Shown one piece after another: positions 2,133 to 58,511 of a stretch of DNA of 64,000 nt. The notes below the pieces were generated by a model. That model worked only from the letters and a program-made list of their open reading frames with translations. It ran no database searches and had not been told where the DNA came from. This DNA comes from Leifsonia sp. 1010 (GTDB taxonomy: Bacteria; Actinomycetota; Actinomycetes; Actinomycetales; Microbacteriaceae): positions 372,001 to 436,000 of the forward strand of contig NZ_JAVDSL010000003.1 of NCBI RefSeq assembly GCF_031455295.1. The letters are read 5' to 3'. The position numbers were made by a program, and so were the translations under genes. Position 1 is the first letter of the stretch. Each line of letters starts with the position of its first letter.

Positions 2133-3745
2133 GCACCACGACCGCCGCACCCGCGGCAACGACGACGGCCAAGAAGGGTGGCTTCACGGCGGCAGCCGCG
2201 AACTACCTGGAAGACCGCACCAGCATCTCAGGGGCCGTCAAGGAGTTCGGTCGCAAGATCTTCCCCGACCACTGGTCCTTCCTCCTCGGCGAGGTCGCGC
2301 TCTACAGCTTCATCGTCATCCTGCTGTCCGGCACGTTCCTGACGTTCTTCTTCCAGGCGTCGATGGCCGAGGTCACCTACAACGGCTCGTACGTGCCGCT
2401 GAAGGGCATCGAGATGTCCTCCGCGATGCAGAGCACGCTCAACATCTCGTTCGAGGTGCGCGGCGGTCTGCTTGTCCGACAGATCCACCACTGGGCGGCC
2501 CTGCTGTTCGTGGCCTCCATCGGCCTGCACATGCTCCGCATCTTCTTCACGGGCGCGTTCCGCAAGCCGCGTGAGCTGAACTGGGTGATCGGCTTCGTGC
2601 TGTTCATCCTGGCGATGGCCGAGGGCTTCACCGGCTACTCGCTCCCGGACGACCTGCTCTCGGGCAACGGCCTCCGCATCATCGACGGCCTGATCAAGGG
2701 TCTGCCGGTGGTCGGAACCTGGATCTCGTTCCTGCTCTTCGGCGGCGAGTTCCCGGGCACGGCGATCGTCGGGCGCCTCTATACGCTGCACATCCTGCTT
2801 CTGCCCGCGTTCGTCGTGGCGTTCATCGCGCTGCACCTGATGTTCGTGGTCATCCACAAGCACACGCAGTACGCGGCTCCCGGTCGCACCCAGGGCAACG
2901 TCGTCGGCTACCCGGTCCTCCCGGTGTACGCGGCGAAGGCCGGTGGATTCTTCTTCATCGTCTTCGGTGTCCTGGTGCTTCTCGCCTCGCTGTTCACGAT
3001 CAACCCGATCTGGAACTACGGCCCGTACGACCCCTCCCCGGTGTCGGCGGGTACCCAGCCGGACTGGTACATCGGCTTCGCGGACGGCGCCCTGCGTCTG
3101 GTTCCGCCGGGCTGGGAGTTCGTGTGGCTCGACCGCACCTGGTCGTTCAACATCATCATTCCGGTGGCGATCCTCGGTCTGTTCATCGTGACCGTCATGA
3201 TCTACCCGTTCCTCGAGGCGTGGATCACCGGCGACAAGCGTGAGCACCACATCCTGGACCGTCCGCGCAACGCGGCGACCCGCACCGCCATCGGCGCTGC
3301 CGGTGTCACGTTCTACGCGGTCTTCTGGGCGGCGGCGAGCTCGGACATCATCGCGACGCACTTCAAGCTGACGATGGAGGGTGTCATCCACACCCTGCAG
3401 GCGCTGTTGTTCATCGGCCCGCTGATCGCGTACGTCGTGACCAAGCGCGTCTGCCTGGCGCTGCAGAAGAAGGACCGCTCGATCGCCCTCCACGGTTACG
3501 AGAGCGGCCGCATCGTGAAGCTGCCCGGTGGCGAGTTCATCGAGGTGCACGAGCAGCTGAGCGACTACGAGCGCTGGCGTCTGGTGTCGTTCGAGTCGTA
3601 CGAGCCGCTGATGCTGCGTCCGAACCGTCGGGGCAAGATCACGGCCGCGAACCGCATGCGCGCTGGCCTGTCCCGCTGGTTCTTCGAGGACCGCATCGTT
3701 CCGCCGACCCGGAACGAGCTCGAGTCGGGTCACGACCACCACTGA
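2129..3745 (+). CDS. qcrB: Cytochrome bc1 complex cytochrome b subunit QcrB
   Basis: 538 residues from a TTG at 2129 that overlaps the TGA of qcrA; GGGAG lies about 8 nt upstream. The reading frame is open further upstream, but only inside qcrA. The protein has many transmembrane helices and the haem-ligand regions HHWAALLF...GLHMLRIF and LYTLHILLLPAF...IALHLMF, plus a quinol-site PEWY-like region written here as QPDWY. It is the membrane core of the bc1 complex, binding two b haems and menaquinol. The length fits actinobacterial QcrB, which has an extended cytosolic C-terminal part. Last gene of the operon. Confidence 0.96.
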   Translation: MSTTTAAPAATTTAKKGGFTAAAANYLEDRTSISGAVKEFGRKIFPDHWSFLLGEVALYSFIVILLSGTFLTFFFQASMAEVTYNGSYVPLKGIEMSSAMQSTLNISFEVRGGLLVRQIHHWAALLFVASIGLHMLRIFFTGAFRKPRELNWVIGFVLFILAMAEGFTGYSLPDDLLSGNGLRIIDGLIKGLPVVGTWISFLLFGGEFPGTAIVGRLYTLHILLLPAFVVAFIALHLMFVVIHKHTQYAAPGRTQGNVVGYPVLPVYAAKAGGFFFIVFGVLVLLASLFTINPIWNYGPYDPSPVSAGTQPDWYIGFADGALRLVPPGWEFVWLDRTWSFNIIIPVAILGLFIVTVMIYPFLEAWITGDKREHHILDRPRNAATRTAIGAAGVTFYAVFWAAASSDIIATHFKLTMEGVIHTLQALLFIGPLIAYVVTKRVCLALQKKDRSIALHGYESGRIVKLPGGEFIEVHEQLSDYERWRLVSFESYEPLMLRPNRRGKITAANRMRAGLSRWFFEDRIVPPTRNELESGHDHH

Positions 3746-3760
3746 GGCCCGCCTCCGTCG

Positions 3761-3800
3761 GAAGCGCCGGTGCGTTCATTCGCGCCGGCGCTTTCTCGTT
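3761..3800 (+). terminator. Probable terminator of the ctaE-qcrCAB operon
   Basis: A 13-bp stem with one mismatch (3762-3774 against 3781-3793) and a 6-nt loop TTCATT is followed by TCTCGTT. It lies 15 bp after the qcrB stop and before rlmA, as expected for an intrinsic terminator with a weak T tract. Confidence 0.7.
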
Positions 3801-3840
3801 CCCGCCCGTTGTTTCCGTTCCGTCGACCGAGGGGCTGCCG

Positions 3841-4659
3841 ATGTCCGTTGATCCGTCCCGCCTCGCCGCCTGGCTGCGTTGCCCGGTCTGCCACGCCGAT
3901 CTGGAACCGGTCGAGCGCCTCACTCTGGGATGTGTGAACGGGCACCGCCACGACGTCAACAAGCGCGGCTACGTCGTCCTGCTCGGCGGAGGAACGAAGC
4001 ACCTGGGCGACACCGCCGAGATGCTCGATGCACGCGACCTGGTGCTCGAGAGCGGCGCCTACTCCCCCATCGCCGACGCCGTGGCAGCGTCGGCCACCGG
4101 GACGCGCGTGCTGGATGCGGGCGCTGGCACCGGCCACTACCTCCGTGCCGCCCTCTCCGCCCTCCCGGACGCGCGGGGACTCGCGATGGACCTGTCTCCG
4201 CAGGCGGTCGCCCGCGCCGCGCGCTCCTCGGAGCGGATGGACGGCCTCGTGGCCGACACCTGGCGTCCGCTGCCCGTCCGTTCGGAAGCGGCCGACACCG
4301 TGCTCGACGTGTTCGCGCCGCGCAACCTCCCGGAGTTCCACCGCGTGCTGCGTCCCGAGGGAACCCTCGTGGTGGTGGTCCCCCGCGCCGATCACCTCGG
4401 TTCGCTCCGCGCCGCCGGGACGATGCTCGACATCCCGTCCGACAAGGCGGACGGGGTCATCGCCGCCACAGAGCCCCTGTACGCCCTCCTGGCGCGCGAA
4501 CCGGTCGCGTACGACCTGGCGCTCACGCCGGCGCTCCGAGACGCTCTGGCAGGCATGGGGCCTTCCGCGCGTCACGCCGCCACAGGCGCCGCTGCCATCC
4601 CGTCCGACGTCGACGCCACGCGCGTCTCCGTCGACGTCCTCCGCTTCGCCCGCCGCTGA
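3841..4659 (+). CDS. rlmA: RlmA-family 23S rRNA (guanine-N1) methyltransferase
   Basis: 272 residues. The N-terminus has the RlmA zinc finger (CPVC at residues 14-17, then C..GH.HD) followed by NKRGYVVLL, a family signature. The SAM site is VLDAGAGTGHY (about 91-101), followed by a catalytic-domain DVFAPRN segment. RlmA-type enzymes methylate N1 of a guanine in helix 35 of 23S rRNA (G745 in E. coli, G748 in the Gram-positive TlrB group, where it affects tylosin response). Which guanine is used here cannot be read from the sequence. It has no operon partner: the qcr terminator is upstream and the palindrome array downstream. Confidence 0.88.
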   Translation: MSVDPSRLAAWLRCPVCHADLEPVERLTLGCVNGHRHDVNKRGYVVLLGGGTKHLGDTAEMLDARDLVLESGAYSPIADAVAASATGTRVLDAGAGTGHYLRAALSALPDARGLAMDLSPQAVARAARSSERMDGLVADTWRPLPVRSEAADTVLDVFAPRNLPEFHRVLRPEGTLVVVVPRADHLGSLRAAGTMLDIPSDKADGVIAATEPLYALLAREPVAYDLALTPALRDALAGMGPSARHAATGAAAIPSDVDATRVSVDVLRFARR

Positions 4660-4710
4660 CGCCGCCGGCCCGTCCCTTCCTCCGCTAGGCGCCCCGCCGT
4701 CCACACCTGC

Positions 4711-5366
4711 TTGACGCAACACGCCGTCATGCCGTCACCCACGACGGCGTGTTGCGTCAACTGGATGAACAGGGTCGGGCCTCCCGGCGGACGCCTCCGC
4801 CCTGGGAACCGAACAGTGTCGCGTGCGACAACCGCACGGTCCGTGGGTCGCAGCGCACCGCTACGCGGAGCACATGACGGCGCGTTGCGTCCCACAGACA
4901 ACAAGCGCCTGCCCGCACAGCGCCGTGGTCCTGCGGGAGCACCCACGCCCCGCCCTATCCGTGGGCCGCAACACGCCGTGACGCGGACACCGTAACGGCG
5001 CGTTGCGCCCCACAGACGACAGACGCCTGCCCGCACAGCGCCCCGGTCCCACCGGAGCCCCGCGACCGCCCATCCGTAAAGCGCGACACGCCGCTACGCG
5101 GACGCCATAACGGCGCGTTGCGACCCACAGGCAATAAACGCCTGCCCGCACAGCGCCCCGGGCCCACAGGAGCGCCGCGACCGCCCGCGTGCGTGGGTCG
5201 CAACACGCCGCTATGCGGACGCCGTGACGGCGCGTTGCGCCTCACAGACGACAAGATCCTGCTCGAACAGCGTCTGGCCTCCAACAGGACGCCTCCACGA
5301 CCACCGCGTCCGTGGGTCGCGACACGCCGTTGCGACAGTGGCATAACGGCGTGTTGCGCCCCAGAG
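4711..5366. repeat. Tandem array of six palindromic units (family A)
   Basis: Most of the 860-bp gene-free stretch 4660-5518 is this array. Palindromes lie at 4711-4760, 4843-4897, 4961-5015, 5076-5130, 5193-5247 and 5312-5366. From the second unit on, the period is 115-119 bp. The shared core is CGCAACACGCCG, a loop of about 14 nt, and CGGCGTGTTGCG, usually inside outer arms GTGGGT and ACCCAC. The first unit has perfect 18-bp arms. Units 2-6 carry several mismatches. The about 62-bp spacers are also related: three contain GCCTGCCCGCACAGCGCC, and spacers 1 and 5 share a GAACAG...GACGCCTCC pattern. The array sits between convergent rlmA and ctaF. No coding potential is convincing and the function is unknown. 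Confidence 0.9.
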
Positions 5367-5468
5367 ACGGCAGGCGCCAGGAGTGGGAGGCAGCGCAGCG
5401 CCGCTGGTGTCGAACCGTGCGGACCTGGCCGGCACACGACGGAGACGCCGGGCGGCCCGATACGCAGC

Positions 5469-5498
5469 GAGGGCCGCCTCCCGTTGGAGACGGCCCTC
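5469..5498 (-). terminator. Probable terminator of ctaCDF
   Basis: An inverted repeat pairs GAGGGCCG (5469-5476) with CGGCCCTC (5491-5498), and the inner bases also pair CTCC with GGAG. It sits 20 bp past the ctaF stop. It has no T tract, so it may need Rho or may act as an RNA 3' stabiliser. Confidence 0.6.
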
Positions 5499-5518
5499 GT
5501 CAGGCGCGGACGGCGCGC

Positions 5519-5941
5519 TCAGCGCGCGAAGTAGCCGCGGTAGTACTCGTAGACCCAGCCCACGATGCAGACCAGGGCGAAGGCGACGCCGATGTAGCAG
5601 ATCCAGAAACCGACGGCGAGGCCCAGGACGACCAGGCCCGCGCCGAACGCGAGAGCAACCGGCCACCAGCTCCACGGGCTGAAGTGGCCCAGCTCGGGGT
5701 CACCGTCGTCGATGTTCGCGTCGAGACGGTCCTCCGGGAGCTCCCCGCCCTGCGAGGCGTGGGAGCGGCCGACGTAGAACGCGATGAACGCGGCGAGGAT
5801 CGCACCGAGCAGCATGCCGATGGTGCCGACCCACTCGACGTTGCGATGGGACTGGTCGAGCAGGTTCCACAGCGTGTAGACGACCGCCGAGAGCAAGAAG
5901 AAGATCGACAGGATCCAGAACAAGATGGCATTGGCGCGCAT
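5519..5941 (-). CDS. ctaF: Cytochrome c oxidase subunit IV, actinobacterial type
   Basis: 140 residues with four hydrophobic helices (about 5-28, 38-58, 93-111 and 113-133) and an acidic loop between the second and third. The conserved start MRANAILFWILSIFF and the PWSWWP motif match the actinobacterial oxidase subunit IV family, a small membrane subunit of the aa3 complex. It starts three bases after the ctaD stop, so it is translated with it. Confidence 0.94.
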   Translation of the reverse strand: MRANAILFWILSIFFLLSAVVYTLWNLLDQSHRNVEWVGTIGMLLGAILAAFIAFYVGRSHASQGGELPEDRLDANIDDGDPELGHFSPWSWWPVALAFGAGLVVLGLAVGFWICYIGVAFALVCIVGWVYEYYRGYFAR

Positions 5942-5944
5942 GGG

Positions 5945-7693
5945 TTACCTCACCTCGTCGTTCGCGACGTCGTGCACAGGGGCGTCGGGGGCGTCCTTCG
6001 CGGGTCCGATACCTACCGGGATGCCCGCCTCGGGGTGGTTCAGGTCGAACGCCGGCGACTCCGAACGGATGCGCGGGATCGACGTGAAGTTGTGGCGCGG
6101 CGGCGGGCAGCTGGTCGCCCACTCGAGCGAACGGCCGTAGCCCCACGGGTCGTTCACCGTGACCTTCGGCGCGTTACGCGCGGTGAGGTACACGTTCACG
6201 AAGAACGGGATCATCGAGATCGCCAGAATGCCGGCGCCGATCGACGACACCTGGTTCATCCAGGTGAAGCCGTCCGACGGCAGGTAGGTGGCGTACCGGC
6301 GCGGCATGCCCACGACTCCCAGCCAGTGCTGGATGAGGAAGGTCGTGTGGAAGCCGATGAACAGCAGCCAGAAGTGCCACTTGCCCAGCCGGTCGTTGAG
6401 CATCTTGCCCGTCCACTTGGGCCACCAGAAGTAGAAGCCGGCGAACATGGCGAACACGACGGTTCCGAAGACCACGTAGTGGAAGTGCGCGACGACGAAG
6501 TACGTGTCGGACACGTGGAAGTCGAGCGGCGGCGACGCGAGGATGACGCCGGTCAGACCACCGAAGGTGAACGTGATCAGGAAGCCGATCGACCAGAGCA
6601 TCGGCGACTCGAACGTGAGCGATCCGCGCCACATCGTGCCGATCCAGTTGAAGATCTTCACACCGGTCGGGACGGCGATGAGCATCGTCATCAACGAGAA
6701 CCAGGGCAGCAGCACCGACCCGGTGACGTACATGTGGTGCGCCCACACCGTGACCGAGAGGGCGGCGATCGCGATCGTCGCGTACACCAGCGTCTTGTAT
6801 CCGAAGATCGGCTTGCGGCTGAACACCGGGAAGATCTCGGACACGATGCCGAAGAACGGCAGCGCGATGATGTACACCTCGGGGTGGCCGAAGAACCAGA
6901 ACAGATGCTGCCAGAGCAGGGCTCCGCCGTTCGCCGCGTCGTAGATGTGCGCGTCGAACACGCGGTCGGCCGCGAGGGCGAAGAGCGCGGCGGCGAGCAC
7001 CGGGAAGGCCATCAGCACGAGGATCGAGGTCACCAGGGTGTTCCAGGTGAAGATCGGCATGCGGAACATGGTCATGCCCGGGGCGCGCATGGTGATGATC
7101 GTGGTGATGAAGTTCACCGCGCCGAGGATGGTGCCGAAGCCCGAGAGCCCGAGGCCGAGCACCCAGAGGTTGCCGCCGATTCCTGGCGAGAACGTCGTGC
7201 TCGAGAGCGGTGCGTAGGCGAACCAGCCGAACGATGCCGCGCCCTGCGGGGTGAGGAAGCCGGCGACCGCGATGAGCGAGCCGAACGAGTAGAACCAGTA
7301 CGCCAGCGCGTTCAGACGCGGGAACGCCACGTCCGGTGCGCCGATCTGCAGCGGCATGAGCACGTTGGCGAAGCCGGCGAAGAGCGGCGTCGCGAACATG
7401 AGCAGCATGATCGTGCCGTGCATGGTGAACAGCTGGTTGTACTGCTCCTTGGTGGCGACCACCTGCAGTCCCGGCTCGAACAGCTGGGCGCGGATGATCA
7501 GCGCCATCACGCCGCCGATGAGGAAGTACACGAACGACGAGATCAGGTACATGTACCCGATGGTCTTGTGGTCCGTCGACGTGATGTAGTTCACGAGGAT
7601 GTTGCCCTTACGGGCCACACCGTTCGCGGTGAGGATCGTGGGCGCAGGCTTGGGAGCGGTGGTCGCTCCCGGCGCCGGTGCTGTCGTCGTCAT
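5945..7693 (-). CDS. ctaD: Cytochrome c oxidase subunit I
   Basis: 582 residues, the normal length. It holds the haem a / haem a3-CuB core: FGHPEVYI carries the His-Tyr crosslink pair and HHMYVTG the CuB histidines, and [11 protein letters not shown] carries the ligands of helix X. About twelve transmembrane helices. It reduces oxygen and pumps protons in the inner membrane as part of the bc1-aa3 supercomplex. It follows ctaC by nine bases and precedes ctaF, forming one operon ctaC-ctaD-ctaF. Confidence 0.98.
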
Positions 7694-27326: not shown

Positions 27327-27383
27327 CTGTGGGTCGCAACACGCCGTTATGCTCACGCCGGAACGGCGTGTTGCGACCCACAG
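27327..27383. repeat. Solo family A palindrome between murG and murC
   Basis: Perfect 22-bp arms (27327-27348 and 27362-27383) around a 13-nt loop. The arms contain the family A core CGCAACACGCCG and outer CTGTGGGT. It is the best preserved copy in the window, 22 kb from the array. No T tract follows on either side, so it is not a standard intrinsic terminator. Confidence 0.9.
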
Positions 27384-27403
27384 CCGCGCGACCCACAGCC
27401 GTG

Positions 27404-50137: not shown

Positions 50138-51070
50138 TCACGATTTGCGCCAAATCTCGGTTTTCGGCGTCGCAATACCGAGATTTGGCGCAAATCGTTG
50201 GAGGCGTTGGACGAATGCGGCTCGGTCGGCGAAGAGGTCGTCGGCGGTGATCCTGAGAACCTGCCAGCCCGCGGCCAGGAGAAGGTCGTGCCGTTTGATG
50301 TCGAGGAACCACTGCCGCCTTTCGACCCGGTGTGCGTCGCCGTCGTACTCGAACGCGATGCGCCGGTCGGGTAGCGCAAGATCCGGGTGCAGAACCCGGC
50401 CGTCGGCGACCAGCACGGGCTCGTTCACCCTGAGGCCCGTGATGCCGAGCTCCGCCAGGAACAGGCGCAGCAAGCTCTCCGGCCGGGAGTCGGTTCCGAA
50501 CCGGATGCGGGACAGAGCCCAGGCGCGCGCCTTGCCTCCCTTCGTCCGGCGAACCCGGGCGGAGGTCTCCGCCAACTGATCGATCGTGACGATCGGAGGG
50601 CGGTTTCGCGCGCCGACGAGATGGTCGCCGGCAGCGACGAGATCGCTCGGCCCGAGCATTCCGGAGAGCTGGCACCACACGTGAGCGGGCAAGGACACCG
50701 GGAGGCCGGCGACGTCCATCCCTTCAAGCGCTCGCAAGCTGTGCCCGGTCACGCCTCGACCGTGCGGGGCCGTGCGTGGAGAGAGCACCGACACGTGCAA
50801 GGGGCGACGAGACGCATCGGCCGGCAACGGGATGCCGAGGAGTTCAGCGGCCGTGGTGTGACTGAAGAACGCACGCATCGGCATGACGCGCAGGTACGCC
50901 CGACACAGTTCCTGCAGCTCACCTGGACCGTACGACAGATTCACGCCGTGAAACGGATGGTGGATGTCGCCGGCGCGCAAGCGCAACGCGTCGACGCCGT
51001 GCCGCTGTGCCTGCGACAGGGTGAAAGGGACACCGACGAGCGGTCGTGGGAGGGGTGGTGGGGTTCGCAT
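50138..51070 (-). CDS. DUF559-type protein with AbiEi-like N-terminus
   Basis: 310 residues from ATG 51070. The N-terminal part (about 8-90) resembles the winged-helix region of AbiEi-type proteins (FTLSQAQRHGV...HHPFHGVNL). The C-terminal part is a Vsr/DUF559-like nuclease fold: HPDLALPDRRIAFEYDGDAH, with Asp, Glu and Asp of a PD-(D/E)XK site. Proteins of this layout are common, variable actinobacterial accessory genes of unknown role. No partner toxin gene is adjacent. The last about 19 codons and the stop lie inside a palindrome, and another palindrome lies upstream. Confidence 0.7.
   Translation of the reverse strand: MRTPPPLPRPLVGVPFTLSQAQRHGVDALRLRAGDIHHPFHGVNLSYGPGELQELCRAYLRVMPMRAFFSHTTAAELLGIPLPADASRRPLHVSVLSPRTAPHGRGVTGHSLRALEGMDVAGLPVSLPAHVWCQLSGMLGPSDLVAAGDHLVGARNRPPIVTIDQLAETSARVRRTKGGKARAWALSRIRFGTDSRPESLLRLFLAELGITGLRVNEPVLVADGRVLHPDLALPDRRIAFEYDGDAHRVERRQWFLDIKRHDLLLAAGWQVLRITADDLFADRAAFVQRLQRFAPNLGIATPKTEIWRKS
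50140..50198. repeat. Family B palindrome, copy 1
   Basis: Perfect 22-bp arms (50140-50161 and 50177-50198) and a 15-nt loop. Core GATTTGCGCCAAATCTCGG. It falls between the convergent acyl-CoA ligase and DUF559 genes and overlaps the end of the latter. It lacks a T tract after the stem. Confidence 0.92.
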
Positions 51071-51159: not shown

Positions 51160-51220
51160 TGAGATTTGCGCCAAATCGCGGTTTTGACGCCCACATAACC
51201 GAGATTTGGCGCAAATCTCA
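51160..51220. repeat. Family B palindrome, copy 2
   Basis: 24-bp arms with one mismatch (51160-51183 and 51197-51220) and a 13-nt loop. It shares the core of copy 1, but the outer bases differ and still pair (TGA with TCA here). It lies between the DUF559 gene start and the epimerase stop; the rest of the 173-bp gap shows no other signal. Confidence 0.92.
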
Positions 51221-58407: not shown

Positions 58408-58424
58408 CCCGGCTAAGAAGCAAT

Positions 58425-58481
58425 CAGCTCCTGAGTTTTTCCGCTCAAAACATCGTTTGAGCGCGAAAAAGTCAGGAGCTG
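58425..58481. repeat. Family C palindrome between parA and merR
   Basis: Arms of 25 and 26 nt (58425-58449 and 58456-58481) pair with one mismatch and one bulge around a 6-nt loop ACATCG. Each arm contains CAGCTCCTGA followed by TTTTTC. It lies between convergent genes. Runs of T and A are inside the stem, not after it, so it is not a standard terminator, though it could stop transcription in both directions. Confidence 0.85.
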
Positions 58482-58511
58482 TTGGCTTGGAACGCGGGGT
58501 GGCGCGGGAGT

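What the first reader, a model, noticed from the sequence alone, without database searches (positions are those of the whole stretch)
4711..5366. Tandem array of six large palindromes filling a convergent gap
Seen directly: palindromes recur with a 115-119 bp period (132 bp for the first step), and their spacers are also related, three sharing GCCTGCCCGCACAGCGCC. No coding, tRNA, CRISPR or IS pattern fits: spacers are similar rather than unique, and there is no transposase. It could be a REP/BIME-like array, a cluster of structured RNAs, or a nucleoid-protein or recombination site. I know no description of this element, but I cannot search.
Basis: partly seen in the sequence, partly recalled or inferred. 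Interest (0 to 1): 0.75.

Follow-up and report, generated by a model that had tools for sequence, protein, structure and literature searches.

The report
Palindromes paired with their own nuclease
The row of six palindromes belongs to families of DNA repeats scattered through soil bacteria, and many of these families appear to be tied to a nuclease gene that carries a matching palindrome at both ends; this looks like a previously undescribed partnership between a repeat and an enzyme.

Summary
The array is real: six palindromes in a convergent gap. The unit is an inverted pair of arms around a fixed 17- or 18-bp spacer (GCAACACGCCG-N17/18-CGGCGTGTTGC); the own genome (a Leifsonia) holds about 37 copies in two classes. 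Pairs of copies led to ~300-aa genes (PF18741/DUF559 nuclease domain, AbiEi-like N-terminus) bracketed by the palindrome. Other genes of the family, one of them in this window (50138-51070), are bracketed by palindromes of different sequence: 54 of 77 genes examined against 1 of 202 slid controls. The palindrome read off the window gene predicted a second dispersed family: 34 matches, control 0. Palindromes and nucleases co-diversify, and cassettes sit at conserved loci. I read this as a REPIN/RAYT-like two-component system with an unrelated, homing-endonuclease-like enzyme; the RAYT domain PF01797 is absent from 20 of 20 genomes. Shown: architecture, dispersal, co-variation. Inferred: that the nuclease binds and cuts the palindromes. 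Against: the own family-1 nuclease frame is interrupted, and class A palindromes (five of the six in the array) have no cognate nuclease here.

The parts
4711..4760 (.). Array palindrome 1, class B (18-bp spacer, arms TTGACGCAACACGCCG)
4838..4900 (.). Array palindrome 2, class A, most decayed (core 4850-4888, 4 mismatches)
4956..5018 (.). Array palindrome 3, class A (core 4968-5006)
5071..5133 (.). Array palindrome 4, class A (core 5083-5121)
5188..5250 (.). Array palindrome 5, class A (core 5200-5238)
5307..5369 (.). Array palindrome 6, class A (core 5319-5357)
3841..4659 (+). Flanking ORF, 272 aa, methyltransferase-like (name recalled, not searched)
5519..5941 (-). Flanking ORF, 140 aa (cytochrome oxidase subunit ctaF, name recalled); used to find the same place in 28 of 28 genomes of the genus
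5468..5499 (-). Separate short-loop hairpin next to the 5519 stop codon; a hairpin at the corresponding place is listed in 18 of 28 genomes (my count): the likely terminator of that gene, distinct from the palindromes
27327..27383 (.). Single class A palindrome; the place is empty in the nearest genome G018
50138..51070 (-). Family-2 nuclease, 310 aa: AbiEi-like N-terminal part, PF18741/DUF559 C-terminal domain; its last residues are encoded inside the 3' palindrome
50140..50198 (.). Family-2 palindrome at the 3' end of the nuclease (GATTTGCGCCAAATCTCGG-N17-CCGAGATTTGGCGCAAATC)
51160..51220 (.). Family-2 palindrome upstream of the nuclease
58418..58488 (.). Solo palindrome that matches the pair bracketing the nuclease at own C1:1323588 (L288), a further family

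Best explanation
The array is a tandem cluster of non-autonomous copies of a dispersed palindrome family whose autonomous form is palindrome - nuclease gene - palindrome. Each palindrome (about 50-70 bp) is two inverted ~20-bp arms around a spacer whose length is fixed within a family (17 or 18 in family 1, 17 in family 2). I propose that a dimer of the cognate protein (AbiEi-like winged helix plus EDxHD/Vsr-like nuclease) binds the two arms and nicks or cuts in or near the spacer, and that repair from other copies homogenises, spreads and occasionally removes copies. A solo palindrome would then be an empty target and palindrome-gene-palindrome the occupied one, as in homing. Shown: architecture, dispersal, geometry, invariant candidate catalytic residues, co-variation of nuclease and palindrome, conserved loci, one solo-versus-cassette pair. 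Inferred: binding, cutting, and cutting as the cause of spread. In this genome family 1 looks like a relic: the class B nuclease frame is interrupted and class A is orphaned.
For: Bracketing: of 77 PF18741 ORFs of 200-480 aa, 54 have matching 5' and 3' ends (score >=16) against 1 of 202 slid controls; at >=18, 53 of 77 against 0 of 202; without the four loci I already knew to lie beside a family-1 palindrome it is 50 of 73. Prediction test: the palindrome read from the window nuclease is dispersed, 34 matches in the own genome (the two source copies included, two pairs overlapping), reversed control 0. Geometry: with spacers of 10-22 allowed, only 17 or 18 occurs in the rows listed (list cut); arms are palindromic to about -11 and not beyond. 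Co-variation: protein identity vs palindrome similarity rho 0.447, 0 of 999 permutations as high, 48 proteins; solo arms resemble the nuclease arms of their own genome more than those of others (0.762 against 0.602; 2 of 40,320 permutations; own genome best in 5 of 8 rows); GATTTG palindromes abound where the locus-2 nuclease carries GATTTG arms (34, 39, 42, 4, 2 against 18, 4, 2, 1, 1 and twelve zeros; p 5.7e-4). Residues E199, D231, E242, H248, D258 are identical in 60 of 60 rows (56 distinct genes). Fold: I-Bth0305I catalytic domain (E 6.5e-3, prob 1.00, TMt 0.75), Vsr (E 1e-2), and Rv2827c (E 2.5e-3). The EDxHD enzyme I-Bth0305I dimerises on a target of nearly 60 bp (PMC3943268, passages); Rv2827c, an AbiEi-family antitoxin, binds inverted repeats (PMC7319586, abstract). 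Solo versus cassette: Agromyces L046 has one palindrome that aligns to both palindromes of the G018 cassette at the orthologous locus. Generality: in seven genomes outside the genus 11 of 24 full loci reach >=18 (no separate control), and an Arthrobacter and a Tsukamurella plasmid have the pair.
Against: No binding or cutting was shown. 23 of 77 ORFs lack matching ends at >=16, many from a second subfamily with shorter palindromes; 13 of 24 full loci outside the genus are below 18. Class A, five of the six array units, has no nuclease near any copy: none of the 7 own PF18741 hits lies within 5 kb of a class A copy (coordinates). The own class B nuclease is split over two reading frames. In own and G018 the solo arms do not fit the resident nuclease best. 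G009 has 18 GATTTG copies but an ATTCG-type locus-2 nuclease. Locus-1 nucleases of G006, G011 and G038 show no core palindrome (G038 near a contig end) and G012's carries a variant. The cassette is found once per family and genome, so it is not an active transposon in the usual sense. Empty sites (3 of 9 own-only loci) show no clean target duplication and unknown polarity. Related genomes are not independent in the permutation tests.
Confidence: 0.6

Rival explanations
1. The protein is a DNA-binding regulator or nucleoid organiser (AbiEi-like autoregulator) and the palindromes are its operators or chromosome-marking sites; the nuclease activity matters little.
For: AbiEi-like N-terminus; AbiEi proteins bind inverted repeats (abstract); one palindrome lies just upstream of the gene. 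Family-1 copies favour the terminus half: 25 of 29 loci in G018, 18 of 24 in G005.
Against: Candidate catalytic residues are invariant in 60 of 60 rows. Family-1 sites favour gene 3' ends, not promoters (65 of 90 and 27 of 34, random about 0.5). No terminus bias for family 2 in G035 (16 of 31 loci). Copies are present or absent, or differ in class, between close genomes.
Confidence: 0.2
2. The palindromes are bidirectional terminators or 3'-end hairpins that happen to be repetitive.
For: Family-1 position just after stop codons and in convergent gaps.
Against: At least three places already have an ordinary hairpin near the stop codon: the 5519 gene, L013 and L168 (by eye). The spacer does not co-vary as a stem. 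Terminators need no 11-bp core shared between genera, nor a copy at both ends of one gene family.
Confidence: 0.1
3. MITE-like elements moved in trans by some other transposase; the nuclease gene is a passenger captured between two copies.
For: Presence/absence at 3 of 9 own-only loci; palindrome-gene-palindrome looks composite.
Against: Different nuclease clades are bracketed by different palindromes, which a chance capture would not give; no Y1 transposase in 20 genomes. Other transposase classes were not searched.
Confidence: 0.1

Closest known systems
REP / REPIN with RAYT (TnpA-REP)
   Same: Dispersed extragenic palindromes in many copies, clusters, several families per genome, each beside a distinct single-copy gene whose phylogeny is largely that of the species (PMC3116915, passages).
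   Different: The enzyme is a PF18741/DUF559 EDxHD-like nuclease with an AbiEi-like N-terminus, not an HUH tyrosine transposase; no PF01797 in 20 of 20 genomes. Palindromes are long with a spacer of fixed length.
EDxHD homing endonucleases (I-Bth0305I) and Vsr
   Same: Predicted catalytic fold; target length near 60 bp for the dimer (PMC3943268, passages).
   Different: Free-standing between palindromes, not in an intron; targets would be repeats scattered in the same genome; N-terminal part is AbiEi-like.
AbiEi / Rv2827c antitoxins (type IV toxin-antitoxin)
   Same: N-terminal part and a fold match; proteins of this family bind inverted repeats at their own promoter (abstract).
   Different: C-terminal nuclease domain; no toxin gene recognised beside it in the window (ORFs, by eye).
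TIRtrons with TIR-associated tyrosine transposases (PMC3733652, passages)
   Same: Gene flanked by long inverted repeats that in some species also form dispersed families.
   Different: Those genes are tyrosine transposases.

Membership tests
REPIN/RAYT | Dispersed extragenic palindromes in many copies | tested here: met
   24 (N17, control 1) + 13 (N18, control 0) family-1 and 34 family-2 matches in the own genome
REPIN/RAYT | Single-copy gene per family flanked by the palindromes | tested here: met
   (among the loci examined)
REPIN/RAYT | The gene is a Y1 HUH tyrosine transposase | tested here: not met
   PF01797 in 0 of 20 genomes (13 of the genus), control rings in 5 of 14; flanked gene is PF18741/DUF559
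REPIN/RAYT | GTAG or CGTC tag at the foot of the palindrome | tested here: inconclusive
   by eye no constant tag in family 1, though CGTC occurs in the arms of Leifsonia 71-9; other families not checked
EDxHD homing endonuclease | EDxHD catalytic fold | tested here: met
   3r3p prob 1.00, TMt 0.75, E 6.5e-3; by sequence only E 0.96
EDxHD homing endonuclease | The exact E, D, H, D residues of the motif | tested here: inconclusive
   E199, D231, E242, H248, D258 invariant in 60 of 60 rows (numbering one higher than in the window protein); not mapped residue by residue on 3r3p
EDxHD homing endonuclease | Cleaves an unoccupied allele and is copied into it | not testable with these tools
   only one solo/cassette pair seen (L046)
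AbiE type IV toxin-antitoxin | Adjacent AbiEii nucleotidyltransferase toxin gene | tested here: inconclusive
   neighbouring ORFs at the window locus look like other genes (by eye, not searched); other loci not tested
Intrinsic terminator | Stem followed by a U-run | tested here: not met
   no T-run after the palindromes listed (by eye) except L051 and L072, two hairpins from MAGs of other phyla
Rfam RNA | Match above a gathering score | tested here: not met
   window 3600-6600

The most novel reading that the evidence does not exclude
Actinobacteria carry a large, order-spanning class of two-component palindrome systems: a vertically inherited AbiEi-winged-helix/EDxHD nuclease whose ~60-bp dimeric target is its own pair of bracketing palindromes, and which converts, spreads and homogenises tens of solo targets per genome. 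It would be an independent invention of the REPIN/RAYT way of life by a homing-type nuclease, with target specificity switching quickly between species at the same locus.
Probability: 0.45. Interest if true: 0.88.

Novelty: categorically new. Interest (0 to 1): 0.8.

Why it matters
It would give a function-bearing partner to a gene family annotated as DUF559 or hypothetical, suggest that palindrome-enzyme partnerships evolved more than once in bacteria, and offer dozens of nuclease-target pairs in which each ~20-bp half-site can be read straight from the genome. That makes two open questions directly testable: what keeps single-copy REP-type enzymes alive over long times, and how EDxHD nucleases change specificity.

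Tried and rejected
Structured RNA: Rfam gave nothing above gathering score and centre pairing is not above shuffles (family 2, 17 distinct centres, 70 of 119 pairs against mean 69; class A, 20 centres, 104 of 140 against mean 97, largest shuffle 110; class B, 13 centres, 60 of 104 against mean 51, largest 65). RAYT: PF01797 absent. Phage origin: viral contigs exact pattern 0, nuclease 0 confirmed of 565 candidates; one phage record, not followed. Terminator and terminus-marking ideas: see rivals. Likely chance look-alikes, judged by eye for lack of palindromic outer arms: L034, L087 (Sphingomonas), L098 (Symbioplanes); L043, L051, L072 look like hairpins of other kinds. All six stayed in the counts.

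Limits of my own counts. The gene calls come from a simple GC3 script, not from an annotation; one search left out 9 sites inside called genes and 9 at locus edges of 108, and used 15 of the family-2 loci. One search lists 148 PF18741 matches in 28 genomes; I examined 90 loci (30 given, 60 picked by hand mostly by rank, the ~1255-aa ORFs left out of the picking), and one search used 88 (L209 and L218 too short). Four of them (L252, L283, L286, L290) I already knew to lie by a family-1 palindrome. The loci with high scores were mostly fetched because of their palindromes, so that call is not an unbiased test. One search counted one nuclease-flanking palindrome of strain 71-9 as a solo and used one locus (L115) whose organism I had not seen; one search repeats it without these and is the one cited (diagonal 0.762 instead of 0.775; 2 instead of 6 of 40,320). 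Some strains there have only 1-3 solos.

Literature: nine searches of the held library. No listed paper concerns palindromes bracketing DUF559/PF18741 genes, but the listings are capped (for example 20 of 571). 14 papers hold the word DUF559 (listing only). PMC12306157 (RepRanger): term search only, no occurrence of Leifsonia, Microbacter-, DUF559, endonuclease or transposase. Subscription journals and bioRxiv are largely not held, so absence is not proof.

Full report
WHAT IS THERE. Contigs of its genus mates have the lengths of named Leifsonia records (1861900, 1237267, 373947), so I call the genus Leifsonia. Six palindromes fill the convergent gap 4660-5518. The unit is GCAACACGCCG - spacer - CGGCGTGTTGC with further outer arms. 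Two classes coexist: A (17-bp spacer, outer arm about CCGTGGGTC) and B (18-bp spacer, outer arm about CAGTTGAC). Window copy 1 is B, copies 2-6 are A.

DISPERSAL. The own genome has 24 N17 matches (control 1) and 13 N18 matches (control 0) with up to 3 mismatches. The exact arms occur in 12 of 30 genomes searched, all of one genus, and in 96 stretches of genome contigs; the 80 rows shown include Leifsonia, Microbacterium, Agromyces, Leucobacter, Sinomonas and Micrococcus (103 sites). When spacers of 10-22 were allowed, only 17 and 18 appear in the rows listed; the list was cut. Over the 103 sites, arms pair well above shuffles out to about -11 and not beyond; inside, pairing is weak. In own copies the centre pairs no better than shuffled. 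So the element looks like two inverted half-sites at fixed distance rather than one long selected stem.

POSITION AND AGE. The nearest gene end is a 3' end for 65 of 90 classified family-1 sites in the loci and 27 of 34 own sites (one locus present twice), against 0.51 and 0.47 for random intergenic positions; family 2 shows no excess (15 of 22 against 0.67) (crude gene finder). Of 34 own places (array counted once), 25 hit a fetched palindrome locus of the nearest genome G018, two of them with one flank only; 14 were aligned. At three (L014, L124, L175) the two genomes have opposite classes. At the other nine, G018 is empty at 3, has a copy with mismatches or a small deletion that my G018 pattern had missed at 5, and is rearranged at 1; window 27336 is one of the empty ones. 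The 5519 gene was found in 28 of 28 genomes; 11 of 28 have core-type palindromes beside it, in varying number and class (my count). Family-1 loci lie in the terminus half in 25 of 29 (G018), 18 of 24 (G005), 5 of 5 (G013) and 9 of 12 (G009) cases; family 2 in G035 does not (16 of 31).

THE NUCLEASE. Pairs of palindromes about 1 kb apart flank a ~300-aa ORF with PF18741/PF04480 matches at its C-terminus, mostly below Pfam's cut-offs. An HMM from five such ORFs gives nine hits above 300 bits (L048, L064, L008 and L056 which are one gene, L042, L195, L009, L075, L171); all nine have core palindromes at both ends, though most of these loci had been fetched for their palindromes. In later loci fetched by PF18741, most but not all such genes have the core (exceptions L264, L272, L273). 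The last residues of the gene are encoded inside the 3' palindrome (L048, L064...GRNTPL; window gene).

GENERALISATION. Other PF18741 genes had no such core but their own palindromes, with different sequence. One is in this window: gene 50138-51070 with palindromes 50140-50198 and 51160-51220. I fetched 60 more loci. Of 77 ORFs of 200-480 aa, 54 have matching ends at score >=16 and 53 at >=18; slid windows give 1 and 0 of 202; mismatched pairs give 82 and 48 of 1500, partly because relatives share palindromes. Of 11 larger ORFs, 2 reach 16. Among 60 seed-type rows a palindrome was detected at the 3' end in 52, the 5' end in 49, both in 42. In seven genomes of other genera, 24 full loci were scored: 15 reach 16 and 11 reach 18, with clear pairs for example in L329, L331, L334, L345, L348, L351, and none in L333, L338, L350; no control was run there. 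Of three plasmid relatives fetched, L353 (Arthrobacter) and L355 (Tsukamurella) have the pair, L354 shows one end.

PREDICTION TEST. From the two palindromes of the window nuclease I wrote the pattern GATTTGNNNCAAATCNCGG-N17-CCGNGATTTGNNNCAAATC. The own genome has 34 matches, the two source copies included, reversed control 0. Across 28 genomes: G035 42, G018 39, G000 34, G009 18, G001 4, G015 4, G003 2, G013 2, G002 1, G005 1, eighteen zero. Among the 22 genomes with a locus-2 nuclease examined, those with GATTTG arms (G000, G018, G035, G001, G003) have more copies (p 5.7e-4). Most listed G035 copies carry a TGCC variant, as do the palindromes of its nuclease. G009 is an exception: 18 copies, 14 with mismatches, and an ATTCG-type nuclease. 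A solo palindrome at 58418-58488 of this window matches the pair that brackets own C1:1323588 (L288).

CO-VARIATION AND INHERITANCE. Cassettes of the seed type that I fetched fall into three orthologous loci in Leifsonia: 18, 22 and 11 genomes, plus a small fourth. Locus 1 and locus 2 proteins are monophyletic (support 0.967 and 1.0); locus 4 nests inside locus 3, weakly supported (0.232). Palindromes differ between species at the same locus. Protein identity and palindrome similarity correlate (rho 0.447, 0 of 999). Solo outer arms match the nuclease arms of the same genome better than of others (0.762 against 0.602; 2 of 40,320 permutations); the own genome is the best fit in 5 of 8 rows, C5G2 being slightly closer to its near relative and own and G018 being exceptions because class A is orphaned there. 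At locus 1 of an Agromyces (L046) a single palindrome stands where Leifsonia has palindrome-gene-palindrome, and it aligns to both.

PROTEIN. In 60 aligned rows (56 distinct genes) D150, R191, S196, E199, R203, D231, E242, Y243, H248, D258, R261 and W270 are invariant (numbering one higher than in the window protein). The AlphaFold model (6-sequence alignment, pLDDT 76.8) matches I-Bth0305I, Vsr and Rv2827c (1zel) with modest E-values; the only match below 0.001 is a mitoribosome protein with rmsd 16, which I disregard. PADLOC gives AbiEi for the N-terminal part (1.3e-7 for L048, 4.9e-4 for the window protein).

MECHANISM. Inferred: a dimer binds the two arms (AbiEi-family proteins bind inverted repeats, abstract) and the nuclease domains act near the spacer. 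The ~60-bp palindrome is close to the target length reported for dimeric I-Bth0305I (passages). Breaks or nicks repaired from other copies would explain homogenisation and class switching. Open: how new sites arise, why cassettes stay single copy, why chromosomes with dozens of targets are not destroyed (perhaps cutting is restricted to single strands, structured DNA or low expression), and what keeps the gene under purifying selection.

VERDICT. Works like REPIN/RAYT; is not a member, because the defining enzyme domain is tested and absent. I found no description in nine searches of the held library, whose listings are capped and which lacks most subscription journals. The corrections made on re-checking (in place, and the selection notes above) did not call for a change of odds.

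Noticed in passing
own C2:542.7-543.8k (L171); G018 L195: The own family-1 (class B) nuclease is split over two overlapping reading frames; the G018 ortholog is one open frame.
   Followed up: partly
L202, L212, L220, L234, L236, L241, L270: PF18741 ORFs not hit or hardly hit by the seed HMM are often next to shorter palindromes (AACGGAGGAGATC, ACTCCGGAG, CGAATCTCCG), several with a 17-bp spacer.
   Followed up: partly
L225 (G018), L227 (G005): Very long open frames (~1255 aa) with a PF18741 domain occur in many genomes of the genus; near these two lie long palindromes with GTTGCG/CGCAAC arms.
   Followed up: no
window 27375-27400 (L016), L193: The end of a palindrome is repeated in tandem just outside it, perhaps a trace of how copies arise or arrays begin.
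   Followed up: no
L129 (G018): The array at the same place in G018 has several very similar units of about 103 bp, so arrays seem to grow by tandem duplication.
   Followed up: no
G018, G005 chromosomes: Family-1 palindromes are concentrated in the terminus half, family 2 in G035 is not.
   Followed up: partly
L175/L190 and L177/L318: Two palindrome loci coincide with breaks of flank similarity between the own genome and G018.
   Followed up: no
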